From: Sabellastarte sp. h YS-2021
Taxonomy: Eukaryota; Annelida; Polychaeta; Sabellida; Sabellidae
Direction: 5' to 3'
Length of the DNA: 64,000 nt
Assembly (NCBI GenBank): GCA_964017235.1
Contig: OZ024935.1
Coordinates: forward strand, 9,176,001-9,240,000
The notes under the pieces: generated by a model
Database searches by the model: none
Told to the model about the DNA's origin: nothing
Seen by the model: the letters and a program-made list of their open reading frames with translations, nothing else
Part shown: piece by piece, positions 30,835 to 64,000 of the stretch
How the letters are laid out: each line of letters opens with the position of its first letter
How positions within the stretch are numbered: position 1 is the first letter of the stretch
Position numbers and translations under genes: made by a program

Positions 30835-31647
30835 TTAATCATTCCTGCACCCCACTGTAACCAATTTATCCATATATTTTGTAAAGTTACCAATTATTCT
30901 GTTTGGTAGTTTCAGATTGGTTAATAGCTTGACCCTCTGGTTGACTTTAGGGGATAATGGTCAGGTCTGAACTGGCAGTCGACGTGACAAGACTAAATAT
31001 TTTTATAAAAATTTATTTAATTTTTTGTTAGTTTTGTATTTGTTTTATCGTAATACTAATAGTCTTGTCTCTGGTTACATACTACACTGGATGAGATGGC
31101 AACTCGTCAGAAGCACAGAATGGCAGGTAAACCTTACAATTTGCGTAGAAAAGTTGAGATTCCGGTTGAATTACAGGTTCAAGATAATGGTGCATTTTTT
31201 AATGAATATTTTTTCAGAGCCAACCACTGGTCAGTCTGATTCAAAGTCTGATACTGAGAGCGATATTGAATTTGATATTGCTGCACTTGTTAATGCCAGT
31301 AGTAGTGATTCAGATCATGTCGTTTCAAAACATAGGATGGATGTTAGAAAATCTGATAGGACACCACCTGTTGAATGGATGCGGGATCCGACTAGTTCGG
31401 ATCAAGCTTTGATTAATGCAAAAGTTTTGTCTCAACTTGATGCAATTGGTAAGCTTTTGAATGCCATTGAAAGTACTTCTGTGCACAAACCTCACTCTAA
31501 GGCTATAAAAGCTGTGTGTAAACCTGTAGCTGTGAGTTCAAATCTCACTGCTTCCCAAGGGGAGGCTCATTTGCAAGAAAGTTTGCCAAATTTACAAACT
31601 ATCTGTCATGATAGGTTATTCAAGAGCAAGTTGAGAATCGTCTCAAG

Positions 31648-31663
31648 GAATTGTCTGGCCTTA
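31648..31663 (+). repeat. Left target-site duplication of the twin-primed LINE
   Basis: GAATTGTCTGGCCTTA, identical at 16 of 16 bases to 42326-42341. Both copies lie in the gag-like region of the DIRS-order fossil. Confidence 0.95.
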
Positions 31664-32031
31664 GTAGGTGCGTAGATATTTACAATAACATATATTGATT
31701 TTTCTATTTCACAGTGAAATAGCAAAATTCTACCATTTGTATCTGTTGTAATTTTAAGAATATTGATATCAACATCAATATTTGATGGAATTAAAATAGC
31801 AACACCCTTACTATTGGATGTACCATGAGAATAATAAATTTTACCATTAAATTCTTTTTCCCATTTATTTTCGTCTTCCTTACAAGAATGTGTCTCTTGG
31901 AGTAATGTTATTCCTTTGTGATTTGCCTGTATCCATTTGAAAAGTGATAATCTTTTCGTTTTTTCTCTCAAACCTCTACAATTGAATGAATTCAAAGTAA
32001 AATTAGTTATCATACCTGGATTTGGTTGCAC
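31664..32031 (-). CDS. LINE ORF2, N-terminal part of the AP endonuclease (inverted segment)
   Basis: The minus-strand frame begins MQPNPGMITNFTLNSFNCRG (either Met could start). It carries the first endonuclease motifs: NSFNCRGLREK, the catalytic-Glu block LLQETHS, SKGVAILI, and NIYAPT at the very edge of the insertion. Beyond 31664 the frame runs into DIRS-fossil sequence, so the last 18 residues of the open frame are not ORF2. The rest of the endonuclease (IIGGDYN, SRLDFWLIS, SDHSIL) is on the plus strand from 38822. The enzyme nicks target DNA to prime reverse transcription; here its gene is cut in two by the inversion and cannot act. Confidence 0.9.
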
Positions 32032-32039
32032 ATTCTAAC

Positions 32040-35000
32040 ATTTTCCATTTGACTAATACCATGTCTATAACCTGAGCTAGCCAGTAAAAACTCCAACTGA
32101 TTATACAGATTAACATTACAAATATATTGTAATTTTGTGTCTTGTAATAACATCAACAGACAGGAGGCATAACAATTTTCAATTTCAAAAATAAACATGT
32201 TCTTTGTGTACCTCATGATTTATATACATTTGACGGTTGTTTCTCAAAACAGAGACATTAACTATATATATTGCATACTTTTAAGCAAACTAAAAGATTT
32301 GAAAATAGACTTTTGATGTGACTTTGACACTTAACTATATTCTTTTACTTGAGTAAGACTTAATGCGTACTTAAAATAAACTAACATATCACTAGGTTTA
32401 AAACATCTTGTTGTTTAAAATATTTTAAACACGTATCGTCAATGTATTGTAGTTCACATGTTTTATAAGCGTATACTAAAATGTATTAAAATATGTTATT
32501 CATCTACTTTTATTTTTTTATTATATTTATTTATTTATTTTTTTTTTTAGCTCGACCCATATAACTATTGACGATTTCACACTTCAACACTACAGTATAG
32601 TGTTTTTTTAAAGCTTTCCTCTATTGAACTAGCACAAGTGTCTACTTTATGTAATGCTTTCCTATTTAACTTATATCATATAATGTTTTTGGGATAAGCA
32701 ATCAACTACATGTCTGTATTGATAAATTGTATAAGACTACTACAGTTCAGTAATATTTAAGCCTCTTGTCAATTACATCACAACAGACCAGCACAAGTAT
32801 GGACTGTGCATCAAAACCCTCTACTCAACTTCTATCACATTTGGTATTTCAGGGTGTTATCAAATGGTTAATCACATTGATAACTGATTATACTCTTACA
32901 AATTGCAAAATAATTGCAATTTTATGTTTTGCGATACATCAAAAAAAAAGTAAGAGACATAACAATTTTTTCAATTTCAAAAGTAGACACAAAGTTATAG
33001 TTCACAAAAAAGAGGATATTTCCAGGTTTCTATCTCCGTTAATTAGGATATGTATGCCAGTAATCTAAATAATGTGAAACAAGTTACGTGTATAAATTAT
33101 CTTGATAGGTTTATACTTCACTACCACAGTATGTTGCATTACAATGAACCAGCACAGGTATATATTTTGTATAGAAACCTTTTGTTTAAACTTCTATCAT
33201 TCATCAGTATTTTCAGGATACTATCCAAAAGCAGTCCCATCGCAACATGTCAAAATATCTTGTTTAACTTCTATCATATTCAGCATTTCAAGGTGTTATC
33301 AATGGTTATTTGTATTATACTATGACTAGGTAATATATACCAGGGTTTTTTGACAATTTCACACTTCGCTGTTACAATATAATGCTATATAAAACTTTTA
33401 TCAATTACATTATAATAAGTCAGTACCAGCAAATACTGTTTAACCTCTATCACACCCAGCATCCCAGAATATTATCAATGGCTAACTACACCACAACATG
33501 AGTAGGCAACACATACCACCTATTCTAACAATTTCACACTTCACTACTGCAATATACTGCTATTTAAGTCTTTTATCAGTTACATTGCAATAAAACCAGA
33601 ATAAGTATATACTTGTATCAAAGCATCTATGCTTATATCAAAACATCTTGTTTAACTTCTAACATATTTAGTGTTTCAGAATGTTGCCAACGATTCATTA
33701 CATTATAATATGGGTAGGCAACCTCTACCTGTTATTTTGATAGATTCACACTTCTACAGTAATATGCTATTTAAGCCTTTTATCAAATACATTACGGAAA
33801 CCCAGCATAAGTACATATTTGTATCAATTTAAAGCTTCTTATTTAACTTCTACAGTATAATGCTACTCAAGCATTTCATCAATTACATTACAATGAACCA
33901 GCACCAGTGTGTATTTTGTATCAAGACATCTAGTTTAGCTCTGTTATATTTAGTGTTTCAGAATGCTATCTATGGTTTATTAATAATGTGTCAATTACAT
34001 TGCAATAAGTCAGGAGAAAATGCTACTTAAGCCTTTTAACAATATATTACAAAAAGGCAGACAAGTGTGTACTTTATATCAAAACATTTTGTTAAACTTC
34101 TATTATATTTAGTAATTCAGGATACTATCAAAGGTTTATTACATTATAATATGTCTAGGTAATATATACCAGCCATTTTGTCAGCATCACACTTTACTGC
34201 AACAACAAATTCTACTGAAGCCTTTTATCAAATACATTACAATAAATATGCACAAGTGTATACTTTGTATTGACACCTGTTATTGTGCAAATGCACACAC
34301 AAAGCTAAATTCAATACAAAATTATAGCACATTTTTAGATTCTGGCATATAACATACATTAAAAGTCTGAACTGTTTTTGAATGGTCAGTTGCATTTTGT
34401 TGTGACAATATTGACAGCTTGTAAATCCATGGTCTTTATATAGATCCAGCACAAGGTTGAATTGGTTACAGTCAGTTACATTGTAATTGACACGACCATC
34501 AATTGCGTACCATAAACAGATCCAAATAGTCCATAGCAATCATCAGTTATGTTGGAATTGGCTCATACCAATGTAATACTACAATCAGTAACAAGTATGT
34601 ACCTTGTATTGACATCTGTTGATGGCGTAATACAGAATCACCATCAGGTTGAATTCAATACAAAATTATAGCTTATATTTAGATTCTAGCATATAACATA
34701 CAATAATATGTCAAGTTGTTATTGAATAATCAGTTGCATTTCGTTGTGACAATATTGTTACTTGTAAATGTATGGTCTTTATATAGATCCACCGCAAAAC
34801 TGAACTGGTTAGTCAGTTCCATGTAGCACAATTGTGTAGCATAAACAGAACTAAATAGTTTATAGTAATTATCAGTTATGTTGGATATGACCAATAACAA
34901 TATAAATACTATAATCAGTTACCTTATATTTAATTAAACAGTACTACAGATTCATCACAAAACGTAATCAGGCACAAAATCATCGATTACGAACAAAGAC

Positions 35001-36740
35001 GTTTCTGAGTAAATTAAGTACTTATAGCTTATAATGCAGCAGGAGTCAATTCACAGTTTCATTTATGTCAACATCAAAAGTTATTAATTTTTGGTTATCT
35101 TTTAAATATGTGTATCAGCGTAACCACAAATATGTAGTTTTTTTTTCTCCATTACTTCAAATTAACATAAACCACAAAAAGCCATAACAGTCACACAAAC
35201 CTCAGCTACCCTACCTTTAATAGTTACATTACAGGGCCCAACATAAGCAGCTACATTCTTTTTATGAGTGTACATCAAGCATCTTAAATTAAAATTACCA
35301 CCATTTCAGAAATCACTACTATCATAAAGATAACATAAAGACATTTTGAGTAAATCAAGTACTTATAACTTGTAATACAACAGGAATCAATTCGCAGTTT
35401 CATTTATGTCAACATCGAAAAGGTATCACTTTTTGGTTAGATTTCAAATATGTATATCAACAAAATCACATGTATATCAACAAAAGTTTTTTTTTCCTCC
35501 ATTACTTCAGAATAACGTAAACCACAAATAGCCGTAACAGTCACACAAACCTCAACTACCATACCTTTTAATAGTTGTTACAGTGTGCAACATATGCAGC
35601 TAGGCTCTTTTTATGATTGTACATCAAGCATCTTGAATTAGATACCGCGATCATTTCAGAAATCACTGCTATCATATGGTGGATTTTTAGTTTGTAATGT
35701 AATTGTTGTTATTACATTATAATGCAGTTGAAGGAAACCATTCTAAAATATAATTTTGATTTATTTAAATCTGAAAAATAATTCTGTTTTATATCATCTC
35801 ACTTTGGCATAAAAATTGACAACTTTCAATAATACTTCACGCTAATATCAGCCTGAGCCAAACTGCACGTAAGCGCAACAATCTCACTATCTAACACCAG
35901 AATGCAGTACTATCAACAACTTAAATCTATGATACACCACAATACATTAATACCAGTATATAACTTGCATCAATATATTTTAATTTAATTAAATCTGAAA
36001 AATAATTCTGTTTTTTATATCATCTCCCTTTGGCATGAAAAGTCACAACCTTCAACAATATTCCCACGCTAATATCAGCCTGAGCCAGACTACAAGTAAA
36101 TGCAAACAATCTCACTATCTAACACCACAATGCAGTACTATCAAGAACTTAAATCTATGGTACACCACAATACGTTAATACCAGTATGTAACTTGTATCA
36201 ATATATTTTAATTTAATTAAATCTAAGAAATAATTCTGTTTTTATATCACCTCCACGCTAATATCAGCCAGAGCCAGACTACACGTAAGCGCAAACAGTC
36301 CCACTGTCCAACACTACAATGCAGTACTATCAAGAACTTAAATCTATGGTACACCACAAAACATTAATACCAGTATATAACTTGCAACAATTACAAAACA
36401 ATTCTTGTCTGAAACATTTTGTATCAATAATCTATTCTTTTCTAATTTACTATCACCTTGTCTGAACAATTAATTTTATAGATTTACCCACAAAAACTCT
36501 CAGCTCACACAAGCCCTGACAGAGCCCAATGGTTTATAAAATATATAAGCATGACAGTTTTACCAGTCGATGCCACAATATGGTGTGGTAAAAAAAAACC
36601 TTTTAAACTATGATATACTCTTTGATTACCGTAAAGTAATACCAATTTACATTTTACTTTAGTAAACTCTTTTTAAGAAAACAGATCTTATTAGAATAGT
36701 TTATGTCAATAATTTGTAGTTTATACTTCTAGTTTATGGT
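32040..36740 (-). repeat. LINE inter-ORF spacer made of four tandem-duplication blocks
   Basis: Between ORF1 and ORF2 of the LINE lie 4.6-4.7 kb without coding capacity. Block 1 (about 32560-34250): diverged units of about 180-230 bp sharing CAGCACAAGTGTRTACTTTG, ACATCTTGTTTAACTTCTAT and TTTCACACTTCACTACTACA. Block 2 (about 34250-34920): two units, period about 348 bp. Block 3 (about 34975-35690): two units, period about 346 bp, sharing GTTTCATTTATGTCAACATC. Block 4 (about 35755-36400): three units, period about 230 bp, sharing TTTAATTAAATCTGAAAAAT and CTCACTATCTAACACCA. The usual inter-ORF region of L1-type elements is far shorter. It is either a genuine spacer of this family or the trace of an older insertion carried along. 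Confidence 0.6.
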
Positions 36741-36749
36741 TTATGTCAC

Positions 36750-38102
36750 CTACAACGATTCTCTTAAATCACACAAAATTTGACCAAGTGCATTTTCTCC
36801 TGGCCACTGACTGTAGTCTTCAATTTTTTTGTCACTTATTGACAAACCGCATGAGAAGAACTTCTCGTGAGGATTTGCTTCAACAATCAAACCTTTTGTC
36901 GTTTTCAATAGCATTGTCAGTTGTGGGTTTTGTTTGAACTTAAGCGCACACCCTGTAAACATGGTTTGCCTTTGCACTGTCCGCCACATATCTTCATCAA
37001 AATGTTTAATCTGATGTCCAAGTGATTTAGCTTTTCTCGGTGTTTTAGCTTTCAAAATTTGTTCTGCCGATAATGTATCTTGAAAGTATAATGCTTTTTT
37101 GTATTGATAGTACTTTTCTACATTATCAAATGTGATGTGGTTTTCTTTAAATTGGCATGGGAAAAAATTACTCATAAAGCTTCTCTTCCCGAAAAAAGCA
37201 GTTCCTTCGGTTGTTGTCATTTGTCGTTCATATGGTGTATGTGGTGCTAAATCTTGTGGGATTTTATCAATGTCATTTGCATAATACTTTTGACTATCGA
37301 TGACAAGACAGTCTCTTTGTACGCTGCATTTTTTAACTTTCTCACTTCTTCTTGCTGCATGAAAGTATGGTAACAGAACTTTTCTGTTGTCAATCATTGA
37401 ACTGGGTAAGTCTTCACATAGTATAATCTTAGTCCCTTTCAATCCTGATTTAGCTTTCCACGCTTTTTCACATTGTGATTTTTCCTCAAACTTGACCATC
37501 ACCTTCCTTGGTTTAGTTACTGGGTATGGTAATAAGTGAGGTGGCTTACCCAAGCGGTACACTGCACATAGTTTAACATCAGCACTAGTAATTTTTAAGT
37601 GTTTTTCAAAAACTATACTTACTTCATCAAGTGTATTTTCATTAGGTCCTTTTTCTGGAAGACCCTCAAGGATCAGGTTATTTTTCCTATTATCTAGGTC
37701 AAGTTTGATAAGGTGGTCATTCAGTTGTTTATTTGAAGTTTCTAGTGCACAGACTCTTTCTTTCAGTGCTGCAATTTCAGTAGAATTATCAATACATTGT
37801 TGAGTGTATTTGTCTACTTTTGATAATGCTTTTCGCATCTCACAAACATCTTCCGATAGGGCTGAGAAGGCATCTTTGAACCAGGACGGGGCATCACTTT
37901 CATTGATTTTTTCGTACTTTTTTTGGTAATTAATACATACAACTGTGTCACTCAGAGGAGTGGTTGGTGATTCTGTCAAGCTTGCCATCATCTTTTTTGT
38001 GTGTATAGCGTCTGGGGAAGTACGTGTATTTATTTTTTTATTTACATCAATTGCTGTTGTGGGACTTCTCTGAGTAAGAGTTCTCTTTTGACCAGATTTC
38101 AT
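36750..38102 (-). CDS. LINE ORF1: coiled-coil/RRM/CTD ORF1p fused to a NADAR domain
   Basis: An intact 450-residue frame. Residues 1-75 are basic and Ser/Thr-rich. About 78-138 is a coiled coil (EIAALKERVCALETSNKQLN). About 138-230 is the L1 ORF1p RRM (RKNNLILEGLPE, KVMVKFEE, GTKIILCEDLP). About 231-295 is the L1-type C-terminal domain (RKVLLPYFHAARRSEKVKKC). About 300-450 is a NADAR/YbiA-like (DUF1768) domain: FFGKRSFMSNFFPCQF, DNVEKYYQYKKALYF, TPRKAKSLGHQ, DMWRTVQRQTMFTGCALKFK, LLKTTKGLIVEANPHEKFFS, and the closing WPGENALGQILCDLRESL. L1 ORF1p trimerises and coats element RNA. NADAR enzymes cleave N-glycosidic bonds of ADP-ribose derivatives or riboflavin intermediates. The fusion is seen directly; what the NADAR part does for the element (for instance countering host ADP-ribosylation) is inference. 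The key conserved positions are kept, so the domain may be active. Confidence 0.9.
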   Translation of the reverse strand: MKSGQKRTLTQRSPTTAIDVNKKINTRTSPDAIHTKKMMASLTESPTTPLSDTVVCINYQKKYEKINESDAPSWFKDAFSALSEDVCEMRKALSKVDKYTQQCIDNSTEIAALKERVCALETSNKQLNDHLIKLDLDNRKNNLILEGLPEKGPNENTLDEVSIVFEKHLKITSADVKLCAVYRLGKPPHLLPYPVTKPRKVMVKFEEKSQCEKAWKAKSGLKGTKIILCEDLPSSMIDNRKVLLPYFHAARRSEKVKKCSVQRDCLVIDSQKYYANDIDKIPQDLAPHTPYERQMTTTEGTAFFGKRSFMSNFFPCQFKENHITFDNVEKYYQYKKALYFQDTLSAEQILKAKTPRKAKSLGHQIKHFDEDMWRTVQRQTMFTGCALKFKQNPQLTMLLKTTKGLIVEANPHEKFFSCGLSISDKKIEDYSQWPGENALGQILCDLRESL

Positions 38103-38821
38103 AAACTTTATTCATTCACTTCTTTATTCATAGCAACATGACAGATTCGTTTGTGAATCCCGACCCTGATCAGGAAGATACTTAGTTGTAATAAAAGTCG
38201 CTACAGTACATAAGCCACTGAAAGGCTAAGATTTTTTTCCACCTTTAAAGTTTTTTTTTCTCCTCCTTTACAGGCCTTTGTTTACACACCTTCATTCAGC
38301 TACACAATTTTACTTTAAATTCTCCCTGGTGTAAACTCTTGGAAACAGTTTATGCAGCACTACTAACAACACAAGGCAGGCCACTGTATATCACTGATGC
38401 ACATTACAAGGTCGTATATTCTTTACCAGAATGATGTTAATGGGCTTCTCAGCAGTTTACATTACTCTTCTAACAACACAAGGCAAGTTTTTGTATATCG
38501 GTGATGCACATGGTTAAATGTCATAATGAGCGACAATTAAAGGTTTCTATCGGGGATACATTTTAAGTTATTTGCAGTGTTGAGAGTTGAAAAAACAACT
38601 GTAATAACAATAAAAAACTCTCCCCAGATACCATTTAGAAGTATGCATTTGTTCATTTATGGTCCATATACTGTAGATCTTTTCACTTTAAAATCTCCGT
38701 TTGAAAACATGTCTTTTCTGTTATCGGTACATAATAAAATGCATTCCTATATGAACACGTCTTTTCCGTTATCGTCTTTTCCGTTATCGGTACATACTAA
38801 AATGCATTCCTATATGAACTT
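38103..38821 (-). promoter_or_regulatory. LINE 5' UTR with tandem monomers
   Basis: Upstream of ORF1 on the minus strand. Its outermost 110 bp hold two copies of a unit containing GGTACATAATAAAATGCATT and CCTATATGAAC (about 38713-38760 and 38775-38820) plus a partial CTTTTCCGTTATCG between them. A second pair of similar segments (AACACAAGGCA...TGATGCACAT) lies at about 38367-38403 and 38475-38511. Tandem 5' monomers with promoter activity are known from rodent L1; activity here is inference. The 5' end abuts ORF2 at the twin-priming joint. Confidence 0.6.
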
Positions 38822-41800
38822 ATAAAGTTAATTGAAGAGTATAGCGACAACCCATTAATTATTGGTGGTGATTATAACATATGCCTTGATAATAATAAAG
38901 ATAAAAAAGGAGGTACCTTGGACAAAGAATCAGCTTATAGGGAGAATTTACATAACTTTATGGAAGAATTTTGTTTATCGGAAATATGGCGCATTAGGAA
39001 TCCAGACAAAAGACAATTTAGTTGGCGAAATAGTGGGCCTAAGGGTTTAGTACAGTCAAGATTAGACTTTTGGTTAATTTCTAACTTTCTAGAATATGAT
39101 GTAACTAAATGTTGCATTCATCCTGGACTGCTATCTGATCATAGCATATTGAAACTGTCATTGAACTTGACCGAAACCCAAGGCAGAGGCAGAGGGACTT
39201 GGAAATTCAATAATAACTTGTTAAAAGACTTTGAGTATATAGACCTTGTTAAAAAACAAGTGAAGTCCGTAAAAGAAATTTTTTTTGAAGATAAGAGAGT
39301 CCGATGGGAATTCTTGAAATGTCAAATTAGATCTGAAACTATAATTTTTGCTTGCAACAAAGCAAAACAATCGAGGCATGAAGAAAAAATACTACAAGAA
39401 AAAATACAAAATTTAGAAACAGCTTTAGACGCCAATAATGAAGAACAAATCTCGGAATACAATCAACTAAGGCGAGAGTGGGAAAACCTTCAAGATATCA
39501 AAACTAAAGGTGCTATAATCAGATCGAAAGCGCAGTTAGTAGAAGAGGGGGAAAAAAACTCTAAATACTTTTTAAATTTAGAGAAGCGTAATTACAACCG
39601 GAAATGTATGAAAACAATTATAAATCGAGATGGGTTAGAAGTTACAGACCCCAAAAATATTTTGAATGAACAAGCCAATTTTTTGAGAATCTTTATACAA
39701 CCAGGAAAATTGATTCCATATCTAATAGCAAAATAGAAGAGAAATATTTAAAAAATCCAAGTATACCTAAGCTAGATCAAGATGTTAAATCAAATCTCGA
39801 TCTTCCAATAAATATAGATGAACTTTCACATGCACTTAAAAATATGAAAAATGATAAGTCACCGGCTTAGATGGGTTTACGACTAACTTTTATAAGTTCT
39901 TCTGGACTGACTTAAAAAATCTTCTGTATGAAACATTAACTTATTCTTTCCAACAGGGGGAATTACCTTGTGGTCTTAGAAGAGGTGTACTTTCATTAAT
40001 ACCCAAAAAAGATAAGGATTTACGATACCTGAAATCATGGAGACCTGTATCTTTGCTAGCAACTGATTATAAGATACTAGCCAAAGCACTGTCAATAAGA
40101 TTAGAACAAGTTATGCCAAGTTTGATAAGTTGTGATCAAGTGGGTTACATTAAAGGACGTTTCATAGGAGAAAATGTGAGAATTATAGAAGATATTCTGA
40201 GTTATACTACAACTAAACATATCCCAGGGCTATTAATCCTAATAGATTTTGAAAAAGCCTTTGACACTGTAGAATGGAATTTTCTCTTTAAAAGTCTGAA
40301 ATCTTACAATATTGGATCAGAATTTATTTCATGGGTGAAACTTCTTTATAATAATATCACATTATGTACAGTGAACAATGGGCACCTCTCTCCATCTTTT
40401 AAACTCTCAAGGGGAGTCCGACAAGGCTGCCCGCTATCTGCTTTCTTATTCATATTAGTCTCAGAGATTATATCATTGTCTCTGAAATCTGATAAGGGTG
40501 TTAAAGGAATTAAAATTGCAGGCACAGAATATAAAATTTGCCAACTAGCAGATGATACAACCATTTTTTTAGAAAATTTAAGTTGTCTTGAAGAAGCTAT
40601 TAATCACTTTAATGCATTTCAAAAAATTTCTGGTTTAAAATTAAATATGGAAAAAACTGTTATAATACCATTAGGCCCATTCCGAAATATACTTATTTCA
40701 TTACCAGACTGGCTTAAAGAATTACATATAAAGTTAGATTCTTTTCAAACTTTGGGAGTTTGGTTTTCAACCGATGCTGCAGAGAGAACAAAAAGAAATT
40801 TCGATGAAAAGTTAAGGAAAGTTGAAACCATTATTCAAATTTGGAAACAGCGCAACTTATCATGGAAAGGACGCATTGTAATAATAAAATCTTTGATATT
40901 GTCCCAATTTACACACTTGTTTAGTATGTTATACACTCCTCCATATGTGCTAGAAAAATTAAAGAGACTTATTTTGAACTTTTTGTGGAATAATAAACCT
41001 CCAAGAGTTAAATATGAAACTATGATTGCCAACATAAAAGATGGTGGACTAAAGCTACCAGATATTACCAGTTTTCATAATGCACAAAAAGCCTTTTGTA
41101 TTAAAAGACTACAGACAAGTAGAGGCAAATGGAAAAACTTATTCCTCATATTAAGTAATTTAAATTCTCTCTTGTTGGATCATAAGTTACAAGTGTCTGA
41201 TGTTAGCCCATGTAAAATTGGAAGTTTTCATCATCAAGTACTAAATTGCTGGTATGATATTAAAAGTACACAGCCACTTACAATGATAGAGCTATATAAT
41301 GAGTATGTTTTTATGAACAAATTTTTTCTAGTGAACAATGCTCCTTTAACTCCTAGAATGCTCGGGATGAGTGATGAATTCTTAAATCTAAAAATTATCG
41401 ACTTTTTAGACGAAAAAAAAAAGTTAATCCCTGCAAAAAATTTAAAAAGAAAATTTAAGTGTAGAGCAACCATTCTTGATATACAATGTCTTATTTCAGC
41501 AATACCGGTAACATGGAAACGTAAGTTTCAAATACATACAGAAAGTTTTCAAAGGTTGTCTGAATTTAACATACAAATTAATAAAAAACCAAAAGAATTA
41601 TTTAAACTTAAAAGTTCAGAGATATACTGGGAATTAGTAAACAATAAAATTAAAGCTCCAACTGCACTGTACACGTGGATTGACTTATTTCCATTCTTAG
41701 AAAAACTAGAATGGTCTGAAATTTTTAGCCTGGCTCATAAAATAAGTAAAGAACCGTATTTACAAAGTTTCCAATTCAAAATCTTACACAGGACTGTCAA

Positions 41801-42229
41801 TTGTGGGTACAATCTCTTTAAGTGGAATCTTGTTAATTCTGCTGTTTGCAATTACTGTAATTTATGTATAGATACCATTGAACATCACTTCTACTACTGT
41901 GCTGCATCACAAGACTTTTGGATGAACGTCTCTGACTGGTTGAATTCTTTTACGAGGGAAAGTTTTAGTCTTTCAATATGTGAAGTGCTTCTTGGTATCA
42001 TTAAAACCTCTACAACTGACACACATTATTACACTCATAACTATGTTATCATACTTGGCAAGTGGTTCATTAACTTAAAAAAAATAATAAAGAAAGGATT
42101 TGGTTTCCAGACTATATTGCACATGTCAAAAATAAAGTTAGAGTTCTGAAAGAATCTTTTACAGTTACTAACAATGTGAAGGTGTTTAAACAAAGGTATG
42201 GAAAACTATATGACCATTTATGTGACTGA
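38822..42229 (+). CDS. LINE ORF2, rest of endonuclease, reverse transcriptase and C-terminus
   Basis: Starts at the inversion joint in the endonuclease: LIEEYSDNPLIIGGDYN, SRLDFWLIS and SDHSIL are its later catalytic motifs. A coiled linker follows (about 39300-39560), then RT: WRPVSLLATDYKILAKALS, LILIDFEKAFDTVEW (motif A), GVRQGCPLSAFLFILVSEI, and QLADDTTIFLE (ADD box of motif C, with Leu before the Asp pair as in several invertebrate Tx1/L1 elements). The C-terminus has a Cys/His knuckle CNYCNLCIDTIEHHFYYC. Three single-base shifts interrupt the frame: in a T6 run at 39679-39684, near 39864 (CACCGGCTTAG), and in an A8 run at 42077-42084. Two are in homopolymers and might be assembly errors. 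The true stop is TGA at 42227-42229. Clade: L1/Tx1 group. Confidence 0.9.
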
Positions 42230-42325
42230 TGTATGCGTTAATTGATGTAACTTATGTAACATCTGTTTTGTAATAATCATCTACTAAAGAGGCTAATAAA
42301 AAAAAAAAAAAAAAAAAAAAAAAAA
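42230..42325 (+). other. LINE 3' UTR and poly-A tail
   Basis: A short 3' UTR ends with an AATAAA at 42294-42299 that merges into A28 (42298-42325), next to the right target-site duplication. An uninterrupted tail indicates a recent insertion. Confidence 0.9.
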
Positions 42326-42341
42326 GAATTGTCTGGCCTTA
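42326..42341 (+). repeat. Right target-site duplication of the LINE
   Basis: Identical to 31648-31663. The DIRS-fossil gag-like sequence resumes directly after it. Confidence 0.95.
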
Positions 42342-43625
42342 ATAAAAAAGCTATTGATGCAAAAATTATGTCACAGGGGGGAGAGGTCGGTTGATGATTA
42401 TGTAAATCAAAGAGTCAAATGGCCATATGAATTTGTCTTAATCAAAACTTCCAAAGACAGGTTGAATTACAATCATCTTTATTTTGCAAAGTGGATAGCC
42501 GGATTTTGTCAAATCATGTGAGATGAAGGAAATGAACAAACAAGAGGTCATATGCTAGACTTTTGTTATTGCTTTGTTGGACGATTCCAATGGCTTTTCG
42601 TGGCAAGCAGCAAAAGCCAGTCCCACTGTACTGTTATGTCGAATGGAGCAAGGTGAAGTTGCTGGTTGGTCTGAAACAGAAAAAAATTTATAAGATCCGA
42701 AGAGCAAATCCGCAGAGACATGTTTATGGCTCCCTCACCAATACTGGTAGCCAAAAATTAAAAAAACAAAGTCAGACTCACCAAAAGGGTAACAAATCAA
42801 TGCGTTGTGTACTTGAATGAGAACTCTTGTACTTTTAACAAACACAATGAAACAAAGGGGTGTTTTATAGGCATATCTGTAGTTGTTGTTTTGCCAAAAA
42901 TCTGTAAAAAATGATTAACCCTGGGCATGGTCACGAGGGCTCACTTACAGCCTGATCATGTCCGGGAAGATTTGAATAATATGTCTAGAAATAAAGTTAC
43001 ATATGTACATAGTAGCGTTGAAAAGAGTATAAATAATCAGTATCCTAGTAGGTTTGTGTATAATCAATCTAGTTTTGATTTGAATATTTTGAAGCAGGAA
43101 ATCTTGGCTACTAGAACCACTTTTGAAGAATGGCCAATAGCCAGTGACAGATATGGACCTATGATACCTGGTAAGTCTTATGCTGAGGTCTTGAAGACTG
43201 ACTTACAGTCTCAATGTAAGAAAAGTGTTGCAAAGAATAGGGTGACCATGCAGCAAGGGCGCATTCAGGGCAAGCTTGCGGGGTGGGGGCACATCATACC
43301 CATTAAGAGTCAAAGATTCAGTTCTGATAGCCCAGCTTGTATAAATACTGCCAAGGTAAATGTTAAGGTTGCGCCAGATCACTTGCAAGAACCAGTAGCT
43401 GTTACTAACAGATTTACTCCTCTGTTTGAAGTAGATGAATTTGGTCAGGAAGTTAATGTGATTTATACACTGTATGATATTAACTATGAATTCTCTGACC
43501 TTGAGTGTAACCTTGCCATCCTGGACTCAAATTTGGGATTTTGTTTAAATGTCACAAATTATGATAGTTTTGACAAAAAATTGCTGAAAAAAACGAGTGG
43601 ATCAGAATCTGCTTCAACAAGCTAG
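42342..43625 (+). mobile_element. DIRS fossil 1, second part of the gag-like region
   Basis: Continues the gag-like sequence interrupted at 31663. The piece 42927-43625 contains PVAVTNRFTPLFEVDEFG, a phrase of the kind found near the end of DIRS-type first ORFs. Broken fossil; no function is expected. Confidence 0.65.
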
Positions 43626-43936
43626 CCATGTTCGGAGTATGCTGCTTGTAAAGAACAAATGGGCAATGCATTCGGGGTCATTCAACTGTCACCTCTAATG
43701 CTTTATCAAGGTCCAAAAACTAATCATGCTTGCATATCTGACATTCTTACTCTGCCTAGGGCTGTGAGAGACTCCAATTGTCCAAATTACATGGGTATCC
43801 GGATTCCTGTGGCTTCTAAATTGAAAATAAAAATAAGAAATACTATTTGGCACATTATTAGGACAAACAACTGGTAGACCTACTGGAATTTGGCTTCCTG
43901 CTCGATTTTGACAGGAATTGTAAATTACACTCTACT

Positions 43937-45286
43937 GTGGAAAACCATGCCTCAGGTCGAGATCACACCTATGACATAGAATGCTACATTCAAGAAGAGT
44001 TAAGTCATGGTGCTATGTTAGGACCTTTTGATCAGAAACCAGTATCTTTGCACATATCTGCCTTCATGACCAGGGAGAAGCCAGACTCTGAGGTTAGACA
44101 TACTATTGTGGATTTGAGTTGGCCTGAAAAAATTTCGGTTGATGCTTCAGAAGGACATATACCTGGGTTCAAGCTTTTCTTGAATTATCCATCTGTTGAT
44201 GACATTGTTAAGAAAATTATTGAACTGGGACCTGGTTCATGGTTATACAAAGTTGAAATTATCCGAGCTTTCAGGCAGCTTAAGGTGGATCCAGGGGACT
44301 TGGATCTGCTGGGTCTTAAGCATCAGTCATACTTTGTGGATCAATCAGTAACATTCGGGTACAGACATGGCTCAGTTTTCTTTGAAAAAGTGACCAATAG
44401 CATTAGATATATTGTAAAACAACATGGTTTTCCATATCTGTACAATTATGTCGACAATCTAATATACTGTGGCTTACCGTCCAATATTCACCAGTCTTTT
44501 GAGACATTATTAGAGCTTTTGACCCAGTTGGGTCTTGCCATCAATCCTAAGAGGTTGGTGGCGCCATGCACCTCTTTGGTGTGTTTAGGTATACTTATTA
44601 ACACTGAAACACGAACCATGTCTGTCCCACCTGACAAGCTTAATAATGTTACTGACATGTGTCAGCAATGGCAAACCAAACAATTCTGCTCAAAAAGGCA
44701 GCTACAATCACTGCTAGGTTCTCTATTGTATGTGACAAAATGTGTGAAACCTGCTCGTACATTCCTTAACCGTATGTTGATGGTTTTTAGGAAAACTTTT
44801 GATCAAAAGGCCATCTTTTTGACCAGAGACTTTTTCAGAGATTTAAACTGGTTTTACACCTGTTTGAGACAGTTTAATGGGGCTGTGTATTATGCCACTA
44901 AGCCTGTCCAGGCAGAGTTGCACCTGGATGCATCTCTTACGGGCTTGGGGGGGGGGGGGGGGGATTTTTGATAACCAGCGTTAGGCTTTACCAATTCCAA
45001 AAAAAAATCAAAATTACTGTATTGTTCATCTTAAGTGATAAATATCTTAGCTACGCTCAAAATCTGGGCTTATCAGTGGAAATATAAGAAAATTCAGGTT
45101 AAATATGATAATATGGCAGTTGTGGAGGTTCTCACCTCTGGAAAGACGAAAGATGCCACACTGGGTGCATGTGCTCGTAATATATGGCTGTTATCTGCAT
45201 TATTCAATATTTCCATTCATATTAACCATATTTCTGGAAAATCAAATGTTATTGCTGATTTACTTTCCAGGTTTAAATTTGATTAA
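43937..45286 (+). mobile_element. DIRS fossil 1, reverse transcriptase and RNase H region
   Basis: The family is recognised from the RT core around 44090-44480 (including GAMLGPF upstream and YNYVDNLIYCG at the motif-C position), the thumb region with LGSLLYVTKCVKPARTFLNR, and an RNase H-like stretch ending HINHISGKSNVIADLLSRF. The same blocks in the same order occur in the minus-strand element at 60960-64000. A G-run lies at about 44947-44963. Fossil, broken. Confidence 0.8.
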
Positions 45287-45417
45287 AAGTCTTCGGAATT
45301 GCTTTCCACATATATCCCCAATGTGTCATGGGTCCCCACTCATATCGATTTAACTTGCTTAAATTATGATATATAGTTTCAGATCACACTGTTGCCTCAG
45401 CCCAGCTGACCACCAGA

Positions 45418-46300
45418 GTGTATGCCCGACTTCGGGATGCACATAGACCTGCAACTCAGAAAACATATTGCAGGATATTGGCTGATTTTTTGGCTTTTCT
45501 GGTGGTCACTGGGCTGACCCCTTGCCAGGTAAATTTAGATATTATTTTGGCCTTTCTTGAATATTTGCTAGATAACTCTATATCTGTTGCCAATATTTGC
45601 AATTATCTGGCAGGTCTTAGGACCATGTTCATAATACATAGCCTCCCCACTCACCCTTTCAGGGATGAAGAAATCCAAATGTTTGGTAGATCTGTAAACA
45701 GACCACTTGTTCCTAAGTCTAAATCCATATTTACTGGACAGATCCTGGTGGACATTGTTTCTGTAAATGAGACATTAGAATTTTCACAAATTTTTGTTTC
45801 AGTATATCTTCTGGCATTTTTATCATTTTTGAGATTGTCAAACATGGTTCTCCAAATAGCTTTGACCCTTCCAGGCATCTAGCTCGAGGCATTAATCATC
45901 TTTTATAACAAAAGTGACTATTGTTCTGATGAAATGGTCTAAAATCATTCAATCTCGAGACAAGGTTCCTCGGCAGGTCATTCTCAAATTGCCAGTCACA
46001 GCATTATTTAATATGCTGACTGTGGTTCCTGGTTCATTTTGCCATTTTAAGGCCAAAAATGGTCTCTTCTTACAGATAGTATGGTCAGGAAGCATTTGAA
46101 CAGTGTCTTGCTTTTATTACATTTGTAACACCATAACTTTACATTTCATACCTTTTGGAGGTCTGGGGCCTCTTGGGCTTTTGAACATCGGGTTCCCATT
46201 GATATTATAAAACAGAAGAGCACTTGGTCCTCTGCCTGTGTTTGGAGGTATATACAGAAATCAAATTCCTCCATCTCTCCACTGACCTAAGCCTTCCAAC
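45418..46300 (+). mobile_element. DIRS fossil 1, tyrosine recombinase region
   Basis: The N-terminal SAM-like core-binding part (YARLRDAHRPATQKTYCRIL) is followed by the catalytic region. The C-terminal block around 46140-46260 (FHTFWRSGASWAF, then VWRYIQ) matches the FHTFRRSGATFAF block of the second element. In DIRS-order elements this enzyme integrates a circular DNA copy in place of an integrase. Broken; its last part lies in the tandem-duplicated segment. Confidence 0.75.
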
Positions 46301-60959: not shown

Positions 60960-63900
60960 GCCAAACTAAAAGGAGGAGGGGATGAGAGAGGCAAAAGTGG
61001 AGGGAATAATGGAGGCAGCTTGAGAGGCGTTCTGGAGGTAAGTCCATACAGCTGAACTACGCCACAGCCCATGGGCCATGATGTTCTGAAGAGGGATATT
61101 GTTGTCAAATGCAAATGTGGCCCCAGAACGCCTGAAAGTATGGAACCCATGACCAATTGGAGAGATATTGAGAATGGAAAGGACTTGTCTGAGGGAATCC
61201 CTCACATGAGTATCAATGATTTGTACGTGTGGGGGAGCTTTGCAAGCAAACAAAGGAGCAGAAGGAGGGAGAGGCCTAGATTGGAGGAGAGTTCTCAATG
61301 CTCGGATTGGACATAGGAAGAAATTCTCAATTTGAGGAATTTGAATCATGTGACTAGTATTACCATCTTGGAGGGTCTTGGTCCACTTGACCAGAAGGTG
61401 GGCCCCAGGAGGGGCAGAAATCAAATCTTGTCTTAGGAAATGTTTATCCTTGGAAAACTGTCTGGCTGAGTGAGGAGCTATATTGGAGAGCCTGAAAAAA
61501 GCATAGAAAGCTACCAGAAAAATTGCTCGGAATAGAGGAGGGTCAGACAGGAAGTCACATGCCCTTGAAATATCATACATTGTTCTTATGCAGAATATGC
61601 CCCTAGGCGTGGGTCTAAATGGTGAGGTAATGGAGAGGCTCCTAATATATCTGTGAACCGCTGGGTGAGCTAGAGCCCCAGTGTCAAAATTGAAAAATGG
61701 AGCCATAGAGCAAATGGATGAGAAATAATTTTTAATGACCTTAGGGGATAATCCATTGGTAGCAAGAACTTCCATGAAGATGAGGAGGTTATAAGCCGAA
61801 ATTTCAATCGGAAGGTTGCAGAACATAATAATTGATAAGAAAGTCTTGAAATGAGTCTTGTGGGCTTGGATGGTAGCTGGTCTGTATGCTGAGGCGACTC
61901 TATTCCAGGCAGATGTAAAAAGGCCCTGGGGATCCGGAAGCGAACCTGAAATTATATTTGAAGGTCCAGGTTAAAATAATGTATAGGGACATTATCCCAC
62001 ACAAAGTCAGAGTTGAGGATATGAAGCATTTCTTGTGATATGCCCTTAGGTGAATGTATTCTTGATAATGCATCAACTATGATGTTCTTGTGACCTTGAA
62101 TGTGTTGGATTTGTAGGTCAATATCATAGGCCACTGTAATGAACCATATATTTCTAGTACATGCATGGAGAATTGCATCCCTAGTCTTGCCTGAGTTGAC
62201 CACTTGGACTACTGCCATGTTGTCGCAATGAAACCTGACTGTGGACTGTGCCCAATGACGTGCCCAAAGCCTAAGTGCTACTAAGATATTGAGCATTTCA
62301 AGGTGTGTTATATGAAGGTCAGTGTTAACAAAGGTTGGGACAGGGGCTGCATAGACCCTGTTGGCCCAAGTTCCCCCCACTCCTGTAAGGCAAGCGTCTA
62401 TGTAAAGGGATTGCATGTGCTTCAGCTCTGATTTAAATATTTTGGTGGAGCCAGCAAAGTGAGGAAGGAACCTGATGAACCACTGAATATCCAGAAAAAA
62501 TTCCTCTGTTAGTTTAATTTTTCTAGCATAAGGATTGTTTCTGAATAGGGAGAGTATTCTATTTATGAATATGCGAGCAGGTTTGATGCACTTGTGAAGG
62601 TACACCAATTTTCCTAGAAGGGATTGAAATTGACGTCTGGTTAGTGAATTCTTGGTCATGACCTGACAACATTCATGGTAGATTTCCTGGAGCTTACTGG
62701 CTTCAATGCTCAGAGAATTTTTATCTAGGTCAATGGTGATTCCCAAGCAGGTAAGGACCCTAGTAGGAGGAGATCGCTTGTTCTCATTCATGGGAAGGCC
62801 TAATTCAGTGAGAAGGGCAGAGAGTTTGTTAAAATGACGCCATGCGTCATCTTCTTTGGCGACAATGATATAGTCGTCAATGTAAGCAAAAATCTTGCAG
62901 TTGTCCTTGCCCATGATATGTACAATTGAGTCTGACGTCATCTGGAAGGCCGAGCTCCCATGGGTCCAGCCGAACGCGGCCGCTACGTCCAGACAATAGC
63001 CCCCCCCCATTTTAGGCCAAACTTGAAGGCGTCAGCCAGGTCGACGCGAAGATTTCTGAACGCCCTGGCTACGTCAATTTTTGCAAGGAGAACCCGACCT
63101 TGGGTGGCTTTGATTTGGTCAACAATGTTGTCTATGGTGGGAAATGTGAGAGTGAATTCCAGGTCATCAAATCTGTCCCTGGTGACGGCGTCGTTCACTG
63201 ACGCCCCCCTGGGGTATGAAAGATCAAGAATAACACGCCTTTTATTGCCATCCTTAGGCCTTGTGAGGAGTGGGGAACAATGGAAGTCGTCATAATCTAT
63301 GGTTGGGAAGGGGCCCAGCATGGCTCCCAGTTGCACTTCTTTGGTCAAATAGTGTTGTATGGCAGCAGGAAATTGCATTGCTGAATGGTGGTTTTTGACA
63401 TCCGTATTGTGGAGATTTGAGGGGTTGTTGATAGATAAGGGAAAACCATATGTGAGGTATTGCAATAATCTCTGGTCATGGTAGTCTTTCAGGTGATGAC
63501 GCCATGCGTCGAGATTCAGACTCGAGGGTACAGGAAATCTTGCAAACTTATAGCTTGGAAGTCTAGTACTTCTAATGGCCTTGGCCATGCATAGGTAGTC
63601 CTCAAGTGTATATGTAGCTTTGGGTTCCCTGTCTGGACCACAAAATTGAAAGTCTGTAGACGTTTTGGCCAAGAAACCTTTAGTTTTTTGTGTGTTATTA
63701 AAATCAGAAATGACGGCGTCAGAAAGTTCACTGAGATGCCTAGGAATGACGAACGGACGAGAGTCGACGCATGGACCCACGACATCCCTAACAGTATCAA
63801 GCCCATCATCAGCAGTTGATGAAGTGGGTTCTTGTTGCTGTATAATCATATCAATTTTATCTTGCATATACTCAGTATAGGATTTGAATCCTAACTTTCT

Positions 63901-64000
63901 ACTGAGAATGTCTTTCTCATAGTCTCTATAGCACGATTTGGGATCCAAATCACTGTTTTGATATTCATAAAATGTAATAAACATTGCAAATGAGATTGTA
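60960..64000 (-). mobile_element. DIRS-order (Ngaro-like) retroelement 2, well preserved, runs off the window
   Basis: Parts on the minus strand, 5' to 3': end of the first ORF and RT start (63984-62983), RT and RNase H (63010-61952), tyrosine recombinase (61826-60966). Family phrases include GAMLGPFPTIDYDDF, FAYIDDYIIVAKEDD, LGKLVYLHKCIKPARIF, HIQGHKNIIVDALSRI and, in the recombinase, GHGFHTFRRSGATFAFDNN. The order RT-RH-YR without methyltransferase is Ngaro-like and the same as in fossil 1. It looks close to whole over the part seen, with only one or two breaks, and is clearly younger than fossil 1. It lies upstream of the visible C1q exons, perhaps in an intron. Its GC content is visibly higher than that of the surroundings. 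The 5' end is beyond 64000. Confidence 0.85.

What the first reader, a model, noticed from the sequence alone, without database searches (positions are those of the whole stretch)
36750..38102. L1-type ORF1 protein fused to a NADAR (YbiA-like) ADP-ribose glycosidase domain
One intact 450-codon frame carries coiled coil, L1 RRM and L1 C-terminal domain, then about 150 residues with NADAR signatures from SNFFPCQF to WPGENALGQILCDLRESL. NADAR proteins are known to act on ADP-ribose derivatives, and some remove ADP-ribose from nucleic acid (reported for DNA guanine modified by DarT-type toxins). Host PARP-family ADP-ribosylation restricts viruses and retroelements. A retrotransposon RNA-binding protein bearing a de-ADP-ribosylating domain would be a plausible counter-defence, or an enzyme acting on the element's own RNA or DNA ends. 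That role is inference; the fusion itself is read from the sequence. I do not know of a formal description, though such fusions may already sit unremarked in mollusc proteomes.
Basis: partly seen in the sequence, partly recalled or inferred. Interest (0 to 1): 0.9.

Follow-up and report, generated by a model that had tools for sequence, protein, structure and literature searches.

The report
Jumping gene with ADP-ribose-removing domain
The RNA-coating protein of a family of jumping genes in this animal's genome carries an extra, still-conserved enzyme domain of the kind that elsewhere strips ADP-ribose off DNA and RNA, which suggests (but does not prove) that these elements undo a chemical attack on their genetic material.

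The parts
31648..31663 (.). left target-site duplication GAATTGTCTGGCCTTA
   Evidence: exact 16-mer, the only such pair between 30-34 kb and 41.5-43.5 kb; about 1e-5 exact matches expected by chance
31664..38798 (-). inverted 5' part of the LINE (5' region, ORF1-NADAR, inter-ORF spacer, start of ORF2); inner end approximate
   Evidence: blastn against collinear copy L064: window 31661 matches L064:7418 (3 bases into the duplication) and window 38799 matches L064:7436
31666..32034 (-). ORF2: N-terminal part of the APE-type endonuclease
   Evidence: Pfam Exo_endo_phos profile positions 2-83, E 0.0036, 17.5 bits, below the cut-off of 24.5; contiguous with the plus-strand part in L064
32035..36749 (-). 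4.7-kb inter-ORF spacer with series of degenerate tandem repeats
   Evidence: TRF and self-BLAST
36750..38102 (-). ORF1, 450 aa: L1-type ORF1 protein fused to NADAR
37686..37886 (-). coiled coil, residues 73-139
   Evidence: AlphaFold2 helix 73-139
37410..37685 (-). L1-type RRM, residues 140-231
37233..37409 (-). L1-type C-terminal domain, residues 232-290
36753..37205 (-). NADAR domain, residues 300-450; E329, K336, W373, E408 kept from the 8bau site
38103..38798 (-). region upstream of ORF1, ending in a junction with small duplications (38711-38756 and 38774-38819)
38799..42325 (+). non-inverted 3' part of the LINE
   Evidence: blastn to L064/L065 at 99%
38801..39736 (+). ORF2: C-terminal part of the endonuclease and following region
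   Evidence: Exo_endo_phos profile 138-225, E 1.5e-5, 25.3 bits against 24.5
40053..42149 (+). ORF2: reverse transcriptase and C-terminal region (the ORF2 frame is interrupted upstream of this)
   Evidence: RVT_1 1.7e-29, zf-RVT 2.5e-4 below cut-off; best solved relatives L1 ORF2p, 5.6e-45
42298..42325 (+). poly(A) tail, 28 bases
42326..42341 (.). right target-site duplication GAATTGTCTGGCCTTA

Best explanation
An L1-superfamily (probably Tx1-like) LINE whose ORF1 protein, the RNA-coating protein of the retrotransposition particle, has a C-terminal NADAR glycohydrolase domain kept by selection. Shown by sequence: the fusion, that it is the ORF1 of LINEs with their own endonuclease and RT, its presence in at least 18 families in one genome, purifying selection, conserved distal-ribose glutamates, and that the window copy is a 5'-inverted insertion. 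Inferred: ORF1p brings the NADAR domain onto the element's own RNA and cDNA, where it hydrolyses an N-glycosidic ADP-ribose (or related ribosyl phosphate) adduct placed on guanine by host or foreign nucleic-acid ADP-ribosyltransferases, so that the template stays copyable. The altered pyrophosphate-binding residues suggest that the adduct, or the way it is presented on the polymer, differs from that of known NADARs.
For: Fusion and folds. LINE membership: 16-bp target-site duplications, poly(A), endonuclease split at the inversion; ORF1-NADAR, endonuclease and at least part of RT in line in 16 of 17 copies examined. Relatives: 23 of 24 and 29 of 34 database proteins carry NADAR by precomputed Pfam. 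Selection: NADAR dN/dS 0.09 (95% bootstrap 0.04-0.17), 0.19 (0.08-0.38), 0.09 (0.04-0.16) in three informative pairs; NADAR more conserved than residues 100-290 in 203 of 210 pairs. Active site: E43- and E125-equivalents are E and W89 is W in 18 of 18 families, K50 is K in 16 of 18. Co-inheritance: distances of the ORF1 part and of NADAR correlate at r 0.87 over 21 proteins, 0 of 2000 permutations as high. From papers: NADARs were the only hydrolase family tested that reversed guanosine ADP-ribosylation on RNA (PMC11833690, passages), and they reverse it on DNA, a eukaryotic one included (PMC11543638, passages and section 12); six clams have DNA guanine-N2 ADP-ribosylating activity, CARP-1 cloned from one (PMC11209040, passages); some RNA viruses of invertebrates carry NADAR too (PMC9503650, passages).
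Against: No activity was measured. The pyrophosphate-binding residues are replaced: R79 by H/Y/N in 17 of 18 families (K in 1), R93 by A/Q/D in 18 of 18, W133 by F in 18 of 18; K50, essential in E. coli C7 NADAR, is Q in 2 of 18. Whether this host encodes a guanine ADP-ribosyltransferase could not be tested (search unanswered). One of four independent dN/dS pairs is uninformative (0.50, only 3 synonymous changes, interval 0.13-2.18), and all frames used were chosen for having no stop.
Confidence: 0.45

Rival explanations
1. The LINE NADAR is an active glycosidase on a different substrate: a free ADP-ribose derivative, a ribosyl-phosphate nucleoside, or a step in processing the element's RNA, as suggested in passing for the oyster and brown-algal elements.
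For: Distal-ribose residues kept while R79/R93/W133 are replaced; in 14 prokaryotic or viral NADARs R93 is K/R in 13 and W133 is W in 13, though R79 is R/K in only 11. YbiA acts on riboflavin intermediates, and phage NADARs are argued to act on small ADPr derivatives (PMC11543638 and PMC9503650 passages). RNA processing was proposed in PMC12477816 (passages).
Against: A soluble-metabolite enzyme has no evident reason to stay fused to the nucleocapsid in every family seen (inference); E. coli YbiA also acts on guanosine-ADPr in RNA (PMC11833690 passages).
Confidence: 0.3
2. The NADAR is a binding module that reads ADP-ribose marks on host proteins or nucleic acids to place the particle, and catalysis is lost.
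For: Changes at the pyrophosphate site could lower turnover; K50 is Q in 2 of 18 families.
Against: Both glutamates that coordinate the reacting ribose are E in 18 of 18 families and in 44 of 44 frames, which pure binding would hardly need.
Confidence: 0.12
3. A domesticated host gene, or passenger sequence, that only happens to lie beside a LINE.
For: In the window ORF1 and RT point in opposite directions.
Against: One insertion between target-site duplications; breakpoints 17 bp apart in the element and collinear parts in 16 of 17 copies; 44 stop-free frames in 18 families; dN/dS well under 1.
Confidence: 0.03

Closest known systems
NADAR-bearing ORF1 of Tx1 LINEs of Crassostrea gigas (Repbase), noted in PMC12477816 (Genome Biol 2025; passages seen)
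   Same: NADAR domain in the ORF1 protein of L1-superfamily LINEs
   Different: In the passages seen: a sentence, a pointer to a supplementary figure and a suggested role in RNA processing; no ORF1 anatomy, selection test, pocket analysis or element structure. Whether the window element falls in the Tx1 clade was not tested by a tree.
[quoted passage not shown]
   Same: NADAR recruited by a retroelement
   Different: LTR element, Pol not ORF1; blastp of those domains gave almost only bacterial hits, which suggests a separate acquisition
Human LINE-1 ORF1p (2yko, 2ykp, 2ldy, 2w7a)
   Different: no domain after the CTD (recalled)
Phytophthora nicotianae NADAR (8bau) and E. coli YbiA (2b3w)
   Different: R79, R93 and W133 equivalents are H, Q and F in the window protein; here fused to an RNA-binding protein
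ORF1 esterase of some non-LTR retrotransposons (PMC3905857) and viral-type helicase in TRAS ORF2 (PMC5563155); both abstracts in a search listing only
   Same: enzyme domain added to a LINE protein
   Different: unrelated enzyme families, other LINE clades (CR1/L2 and TRAS; the former recalled)
NADAR in RNA viruses of invertebrates (PMC9503650 passages)
   Same: NADAR encoded by an RNA-based parasite of invertebrates
   Different: in viral polyproteins, not in a retrotransposon nucleocapsid

Membership tests
NADAR / YbiA superfamily | Pfam NADAR profile match over the curated cut-off | tested here: met
   129 bits against 35.1, residues 307-450; 30 of 35 members of alignment A3 match at E 0.01
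NADAR / YbiA superfamily | NADAR fold | tested here: met
NADAR / YbiA superfamily | YbiA-type glutamate (E125) plus E43 and K50 | tested here: met
   window E408, E329, K336; E43 and E125 18 of 18 families, K50 16 of 18
NADAR of the 8bau kind (guanine de-ADP-ribosylating) | pyrophosphate-binding residues R79, R93, W133 as in 8bau | tested here: not met
   H, Q, F in the window protein; replaced in 17 (K in 1), 18 and 18 of 18 families. Not strictly defining: YbiA has K at R93
NADAR of the 8bau kind (guanine de-ADP-ribosylating) | hydrolysis of guanine-ADPr in DNA or RNA | not testable with these tools
   needs purified protein
L1-type ORF1 protein | coiled coil, RRM and CTD in that order | tested here: met
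L1-type ORF1 protein | match to a Pfam L1 ORF1 (Transposase_22-type) model | tested here: inconclusive
   no such family at E up to 1 for the single sequence nor among the families listed for A3 (25 of 27 shown); profile and fold comparisons do match L1 ORF1p
LINE of the L1 superfamily | APE-type endonuclease and RT downstream of ORF1 on the same strand | tested here: met
   16 of 17 copies, at least part of RT in each; RT best solved relatives are L1 ORF2p, 5.6e-45
LINE of the L1 superfamily | poly(A) tail and target-site duplication | tested here: met
   28 A at 42298-42325; 16-bp duplication and continuous flank frame in the joined empty site
Tx1 clade | RT falls in the Tx1 clade in a tree with reference LINEs | not tested
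   no reference Tx1 sequences at hand; name taken from PMC12477816 by analogy
Twin-primed (5'-inverted) insertion | inverted 5' and direct 3' halves between one pair of target-site duplications, breakpoints close together in the element | tested here: met
   window 31661 to L064:7418 (inverted) and window 38799 to L064:7436 (direct), 17 bases between; duplication at both outer ends

The most novel reading that the evidence does not exclude
LINE ORF1 NADARs are a distinct enzyme clade, rebuilt around the pyrophosphate site, that cleans nucleic-acid ADP-ribosylation off the retrotransposon's own RNA and cDNA: a counter-defence carried inside the retrotransposition particle, implying that animals rich in these elements use guanine ADP-ribosyltransferases (CARP-1-like) against mobile elements.
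Probability: 0.25. Interest if true: 0.88.

Novelty: new member of a known kind. Interest (0 to 1): 0.6.

Why it matters
The physiological role of NADARs outside DarT operons, animals included, is stated to be unclear (PMC11125620 passages), and clams have a guanine-modifying enzyme (CARP-1) whose natural target is, to my knowledge, unsettled. A retrotransposon nucleocapsid that has kept a NADAR domain under purifying selection across at least 18 families in one genome gives that question a concrete, testable partner: an RNA-binding protein whose substrate should be the element's own RNA or cDNA. If so, it would be a retrotransposon counter-defence working by base de-modification.

Tried and rejected
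Considered and rejected: ORF1 from one element and RT from another, suggested by their opposite strands; the single target-site duplication, split endonuclease and collinear copies exclude it. Domesticated host gene: rejected by copy number and linkage.

Led nowhere or told against me: the viral-contig scan with the window protein found no relative, and with alignment A2 one viral-contig NADAR (L001). The one genome-contig scan gave 54 prokaryotic NADAR loci; I took 14 of them plus L001 and dropped L008, whose stretch held a stop, leaving 14 as a yardstick. It was fetched with a pattern that contains the E43 glutamate, so its 14 of 14 at E43 is by construction. The NADAR-only protein search returned 10 proteins from 20 candidates, too few to place the donor. 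In the NADAR tree the 27 fusion rows need 2 label changes and 0% of 200 bootstrap trees had one; strongly supported branches force only one, and P0023 and P0024 sit on long, unsure branches. A single origin of the fusion is therefore neither shown nor excluded. The tree of the ORF1 part is not identical in branching order. One search took position 362 for R79 by mistake; searches use 363. P0022 looks frame-shifted inside NADAR and is the only row of 27 with another letter at E43. One dN/dS pair is uninformative, with CTD 1.43 in the domain breakdown. P0034 is a database ORF1 relative without a NADAR call. DUF1768 (old Pfam name, recalled) appeared in none of the 10 papers listed. That no fuller description is in print rests on the searches only, in an open-licence library.

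Not answered: whether ORF1 residues 1-295 have close relatives without NADAR in this genome; how many RT copies there are; whether the genome encodes a Scabin/pierisin-type ART (PF22596; accession and meaning recalled, never confirmed).

Full report

Surroundings. The RT frame at 40053-42149 is on the plus strand, best matched among solved structures by L1 ORF2p (5.6e-45); the element ends in poly(A) at 42298-42325. The 16 bases after the poly(A) recur exactly at 31648-31663; about 1e-5 such matches are expected by chance. The reading frame of the interrupted sequence continues across the joined flanks; that sequence seems to belong to a DIRS-like element (weak RT match 43937-44971, E 0.042; weak tyrosine-recombinase SAM matches 45418-45882, E 5e-4; the DIRS label is recalled). 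An N-terminal endonuclease piece lies on the minus strand at 31666-32034 (Exo_endo_phos positions 2-83, below cut-off) and the C-terminal piece on the plus strand from 38801 (positions 138-225). The 10.7 kb are thus one LINE insertion with an inverted 5' part.

Same genome. The window lies in an unnamed 1.786-Gb genome of 647 contigs (that it is an animal, probably a bivalve, is inference). The ORF1 protein has 96 matching rows there, a lower bound; by my count 67 have no stop inside. I fetched downstream flanks of 17 of these 67. In 16 of 17 the endonuclease and at least part of RT follow ORF1-NADAR on the same strand; RT is incomplete in some (for example L066, L079, L081), and in L082 no ORF2 was found in the 8.7 kb held. 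In the near-identical copy L064/L065 all parts are collinear, and the window's two breakpoints fall at L064:7418 and 7436, with 17 bases between. This is the signature of twin priming (PMC2837659, abstract in a listing).

Relatives. A search of 5.8 billion proteins found 24 relatives, 23 with a precomputed NADAR call; a profile search found 34, 29 with one. Of the 5 without, P0016, P0028, P0029 and P0030 look like pieces that end before or within NADAR, and P0034 is an ORF1 with no NADAR call. No organism names are given for these proteins.

Selection. I used 44 of the 67 stop-free rows, the window included; they form 18 clusters at 80% amino-acid identity. Nine pairs had total dS of 0.03-1.0, from four independent groups. 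NADAR dN/dS, one pair per group: 0.09 (95% bootstrap 0.04-0.17), 0.19 (0.08-0.38), 0.09 (0.04-0.16), and an uninformative 0.50 (0.13-2.18; 3 synonymous changes). The coil-RRM-CTD part gave 0.15, 0.25, 0.19 and 0.38. Among database relatives NADAR is the best conserved part (mean pairwise identity 0.471 against 0.399 RRM, 0.371 CTD, 0.279 coil; 18 proteins, 153 pairs), and its distances track those of the ORF1 part (r 0.87, 21 proteins, 0 of 2000 permutations as high). Choosing stop-free frames favours constrained copies.

Active site. The roles of 8bau residues follow PMC11543638 section 12, mapped through the HMMER alignment. E43 and E125 coordinate the distal ribose; K50, R79, W89, R93, W133 and D130 the pyrophosphates. 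In the window protein these are E329, E408, K336, H363, W373, Q377, F416 and E413. Over 18 families: E43, E125 and W89 are kept in 18, K50 in 16; R79 is H/Y/N in 17 and K in 1; R93 is A/Q/D in 18; W133 is F in 18. In 14 prokaryotic or viral NADARs R93 is K/R in 13, W133 is W in 13 and R79 is R/K in 11. Three standalone database NADARs (P0031-P0033) keep R79 and W133. So the catalytic end is kept and the pyrophosphate end rebuilt, which I have not seen described (passages and searches).

Mechanism. L1 ORF1p packages the element RNA (abstract of PMC5940361 in a listing). A NADAR on its C-terminus would sit by that RNA and the cDNA made from it (inference). NADARs reverse guanosine ADP-ribosylation in RNA and DNA, and six clams are reported to modify guanine N2 in DNA. 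The best reading is protection of the template; it is inference, and the changed pocket argues for caution about the exact substrate.

Prior art and verdict. PMC12477816 (passages) reports NADAR in Ectocarpus Gypsy Pol and, from Repbase, in ORF1 of several oyster Tx1 LINEs, and suggests RNA processing. The two bivalve TE papers in which I looked for the term have no NADAR in the main text (PMC10294476; PMC8905726). The fusion is therefore a new member of a known but barely described kind; the element anatomy, the breadth in one genome, the selection evidence and the derived pocket are added here.

Noticed in passing
window 32035-36749; L064, L066, L068, L070-L081, L083: Long spacer between ORF1 and ORF2 in these LINEs (946-5219 bp, median 3366, 16 copies), in the window with series of degenerate tandem repeats. 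How ORF2 is translated after such a gap is unexplained.
   Followed up: partly
L127 4751-5236 (+), L128 4814-5353 (-): A second kind of NADAR frame: short (the 38 top-scoring of 150 scored matches have open frames of 167-179 aa). In the two I read it stands alone, with R at R79 and W at W133 by eye; the two loci are 94% alike over it, and L128 also holds a dUTPase frame (2e-19) and a 484-aa frame without a Pfam match. Possibly a DNA virus-like or large mobile element.
   Followed up: partly
own genome G000: NADAR is very abundant: 2705 first-look candidates, and all 150 that were scored pass the Pfam cut-off.
   Followed up: no
window 31025-31675 and 42342-45882 (+): The LINE seems to interrupt a DIRS-like element (weak RT and tyrosine-recombinase matches).
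   Followed up: partly
window 60966-63984 (-): Another RT-bearing element (RVT_1 6.3e-7; RVT_3 7.3e-4, below cut-off, in 61952-63010).
   Followed up: no
window 38711-38819: Small duplications at the inversion junction, including ORF2 sequence and a 15-bp tandem repeat, possibly template switching during twin priming.
   Followed up: no
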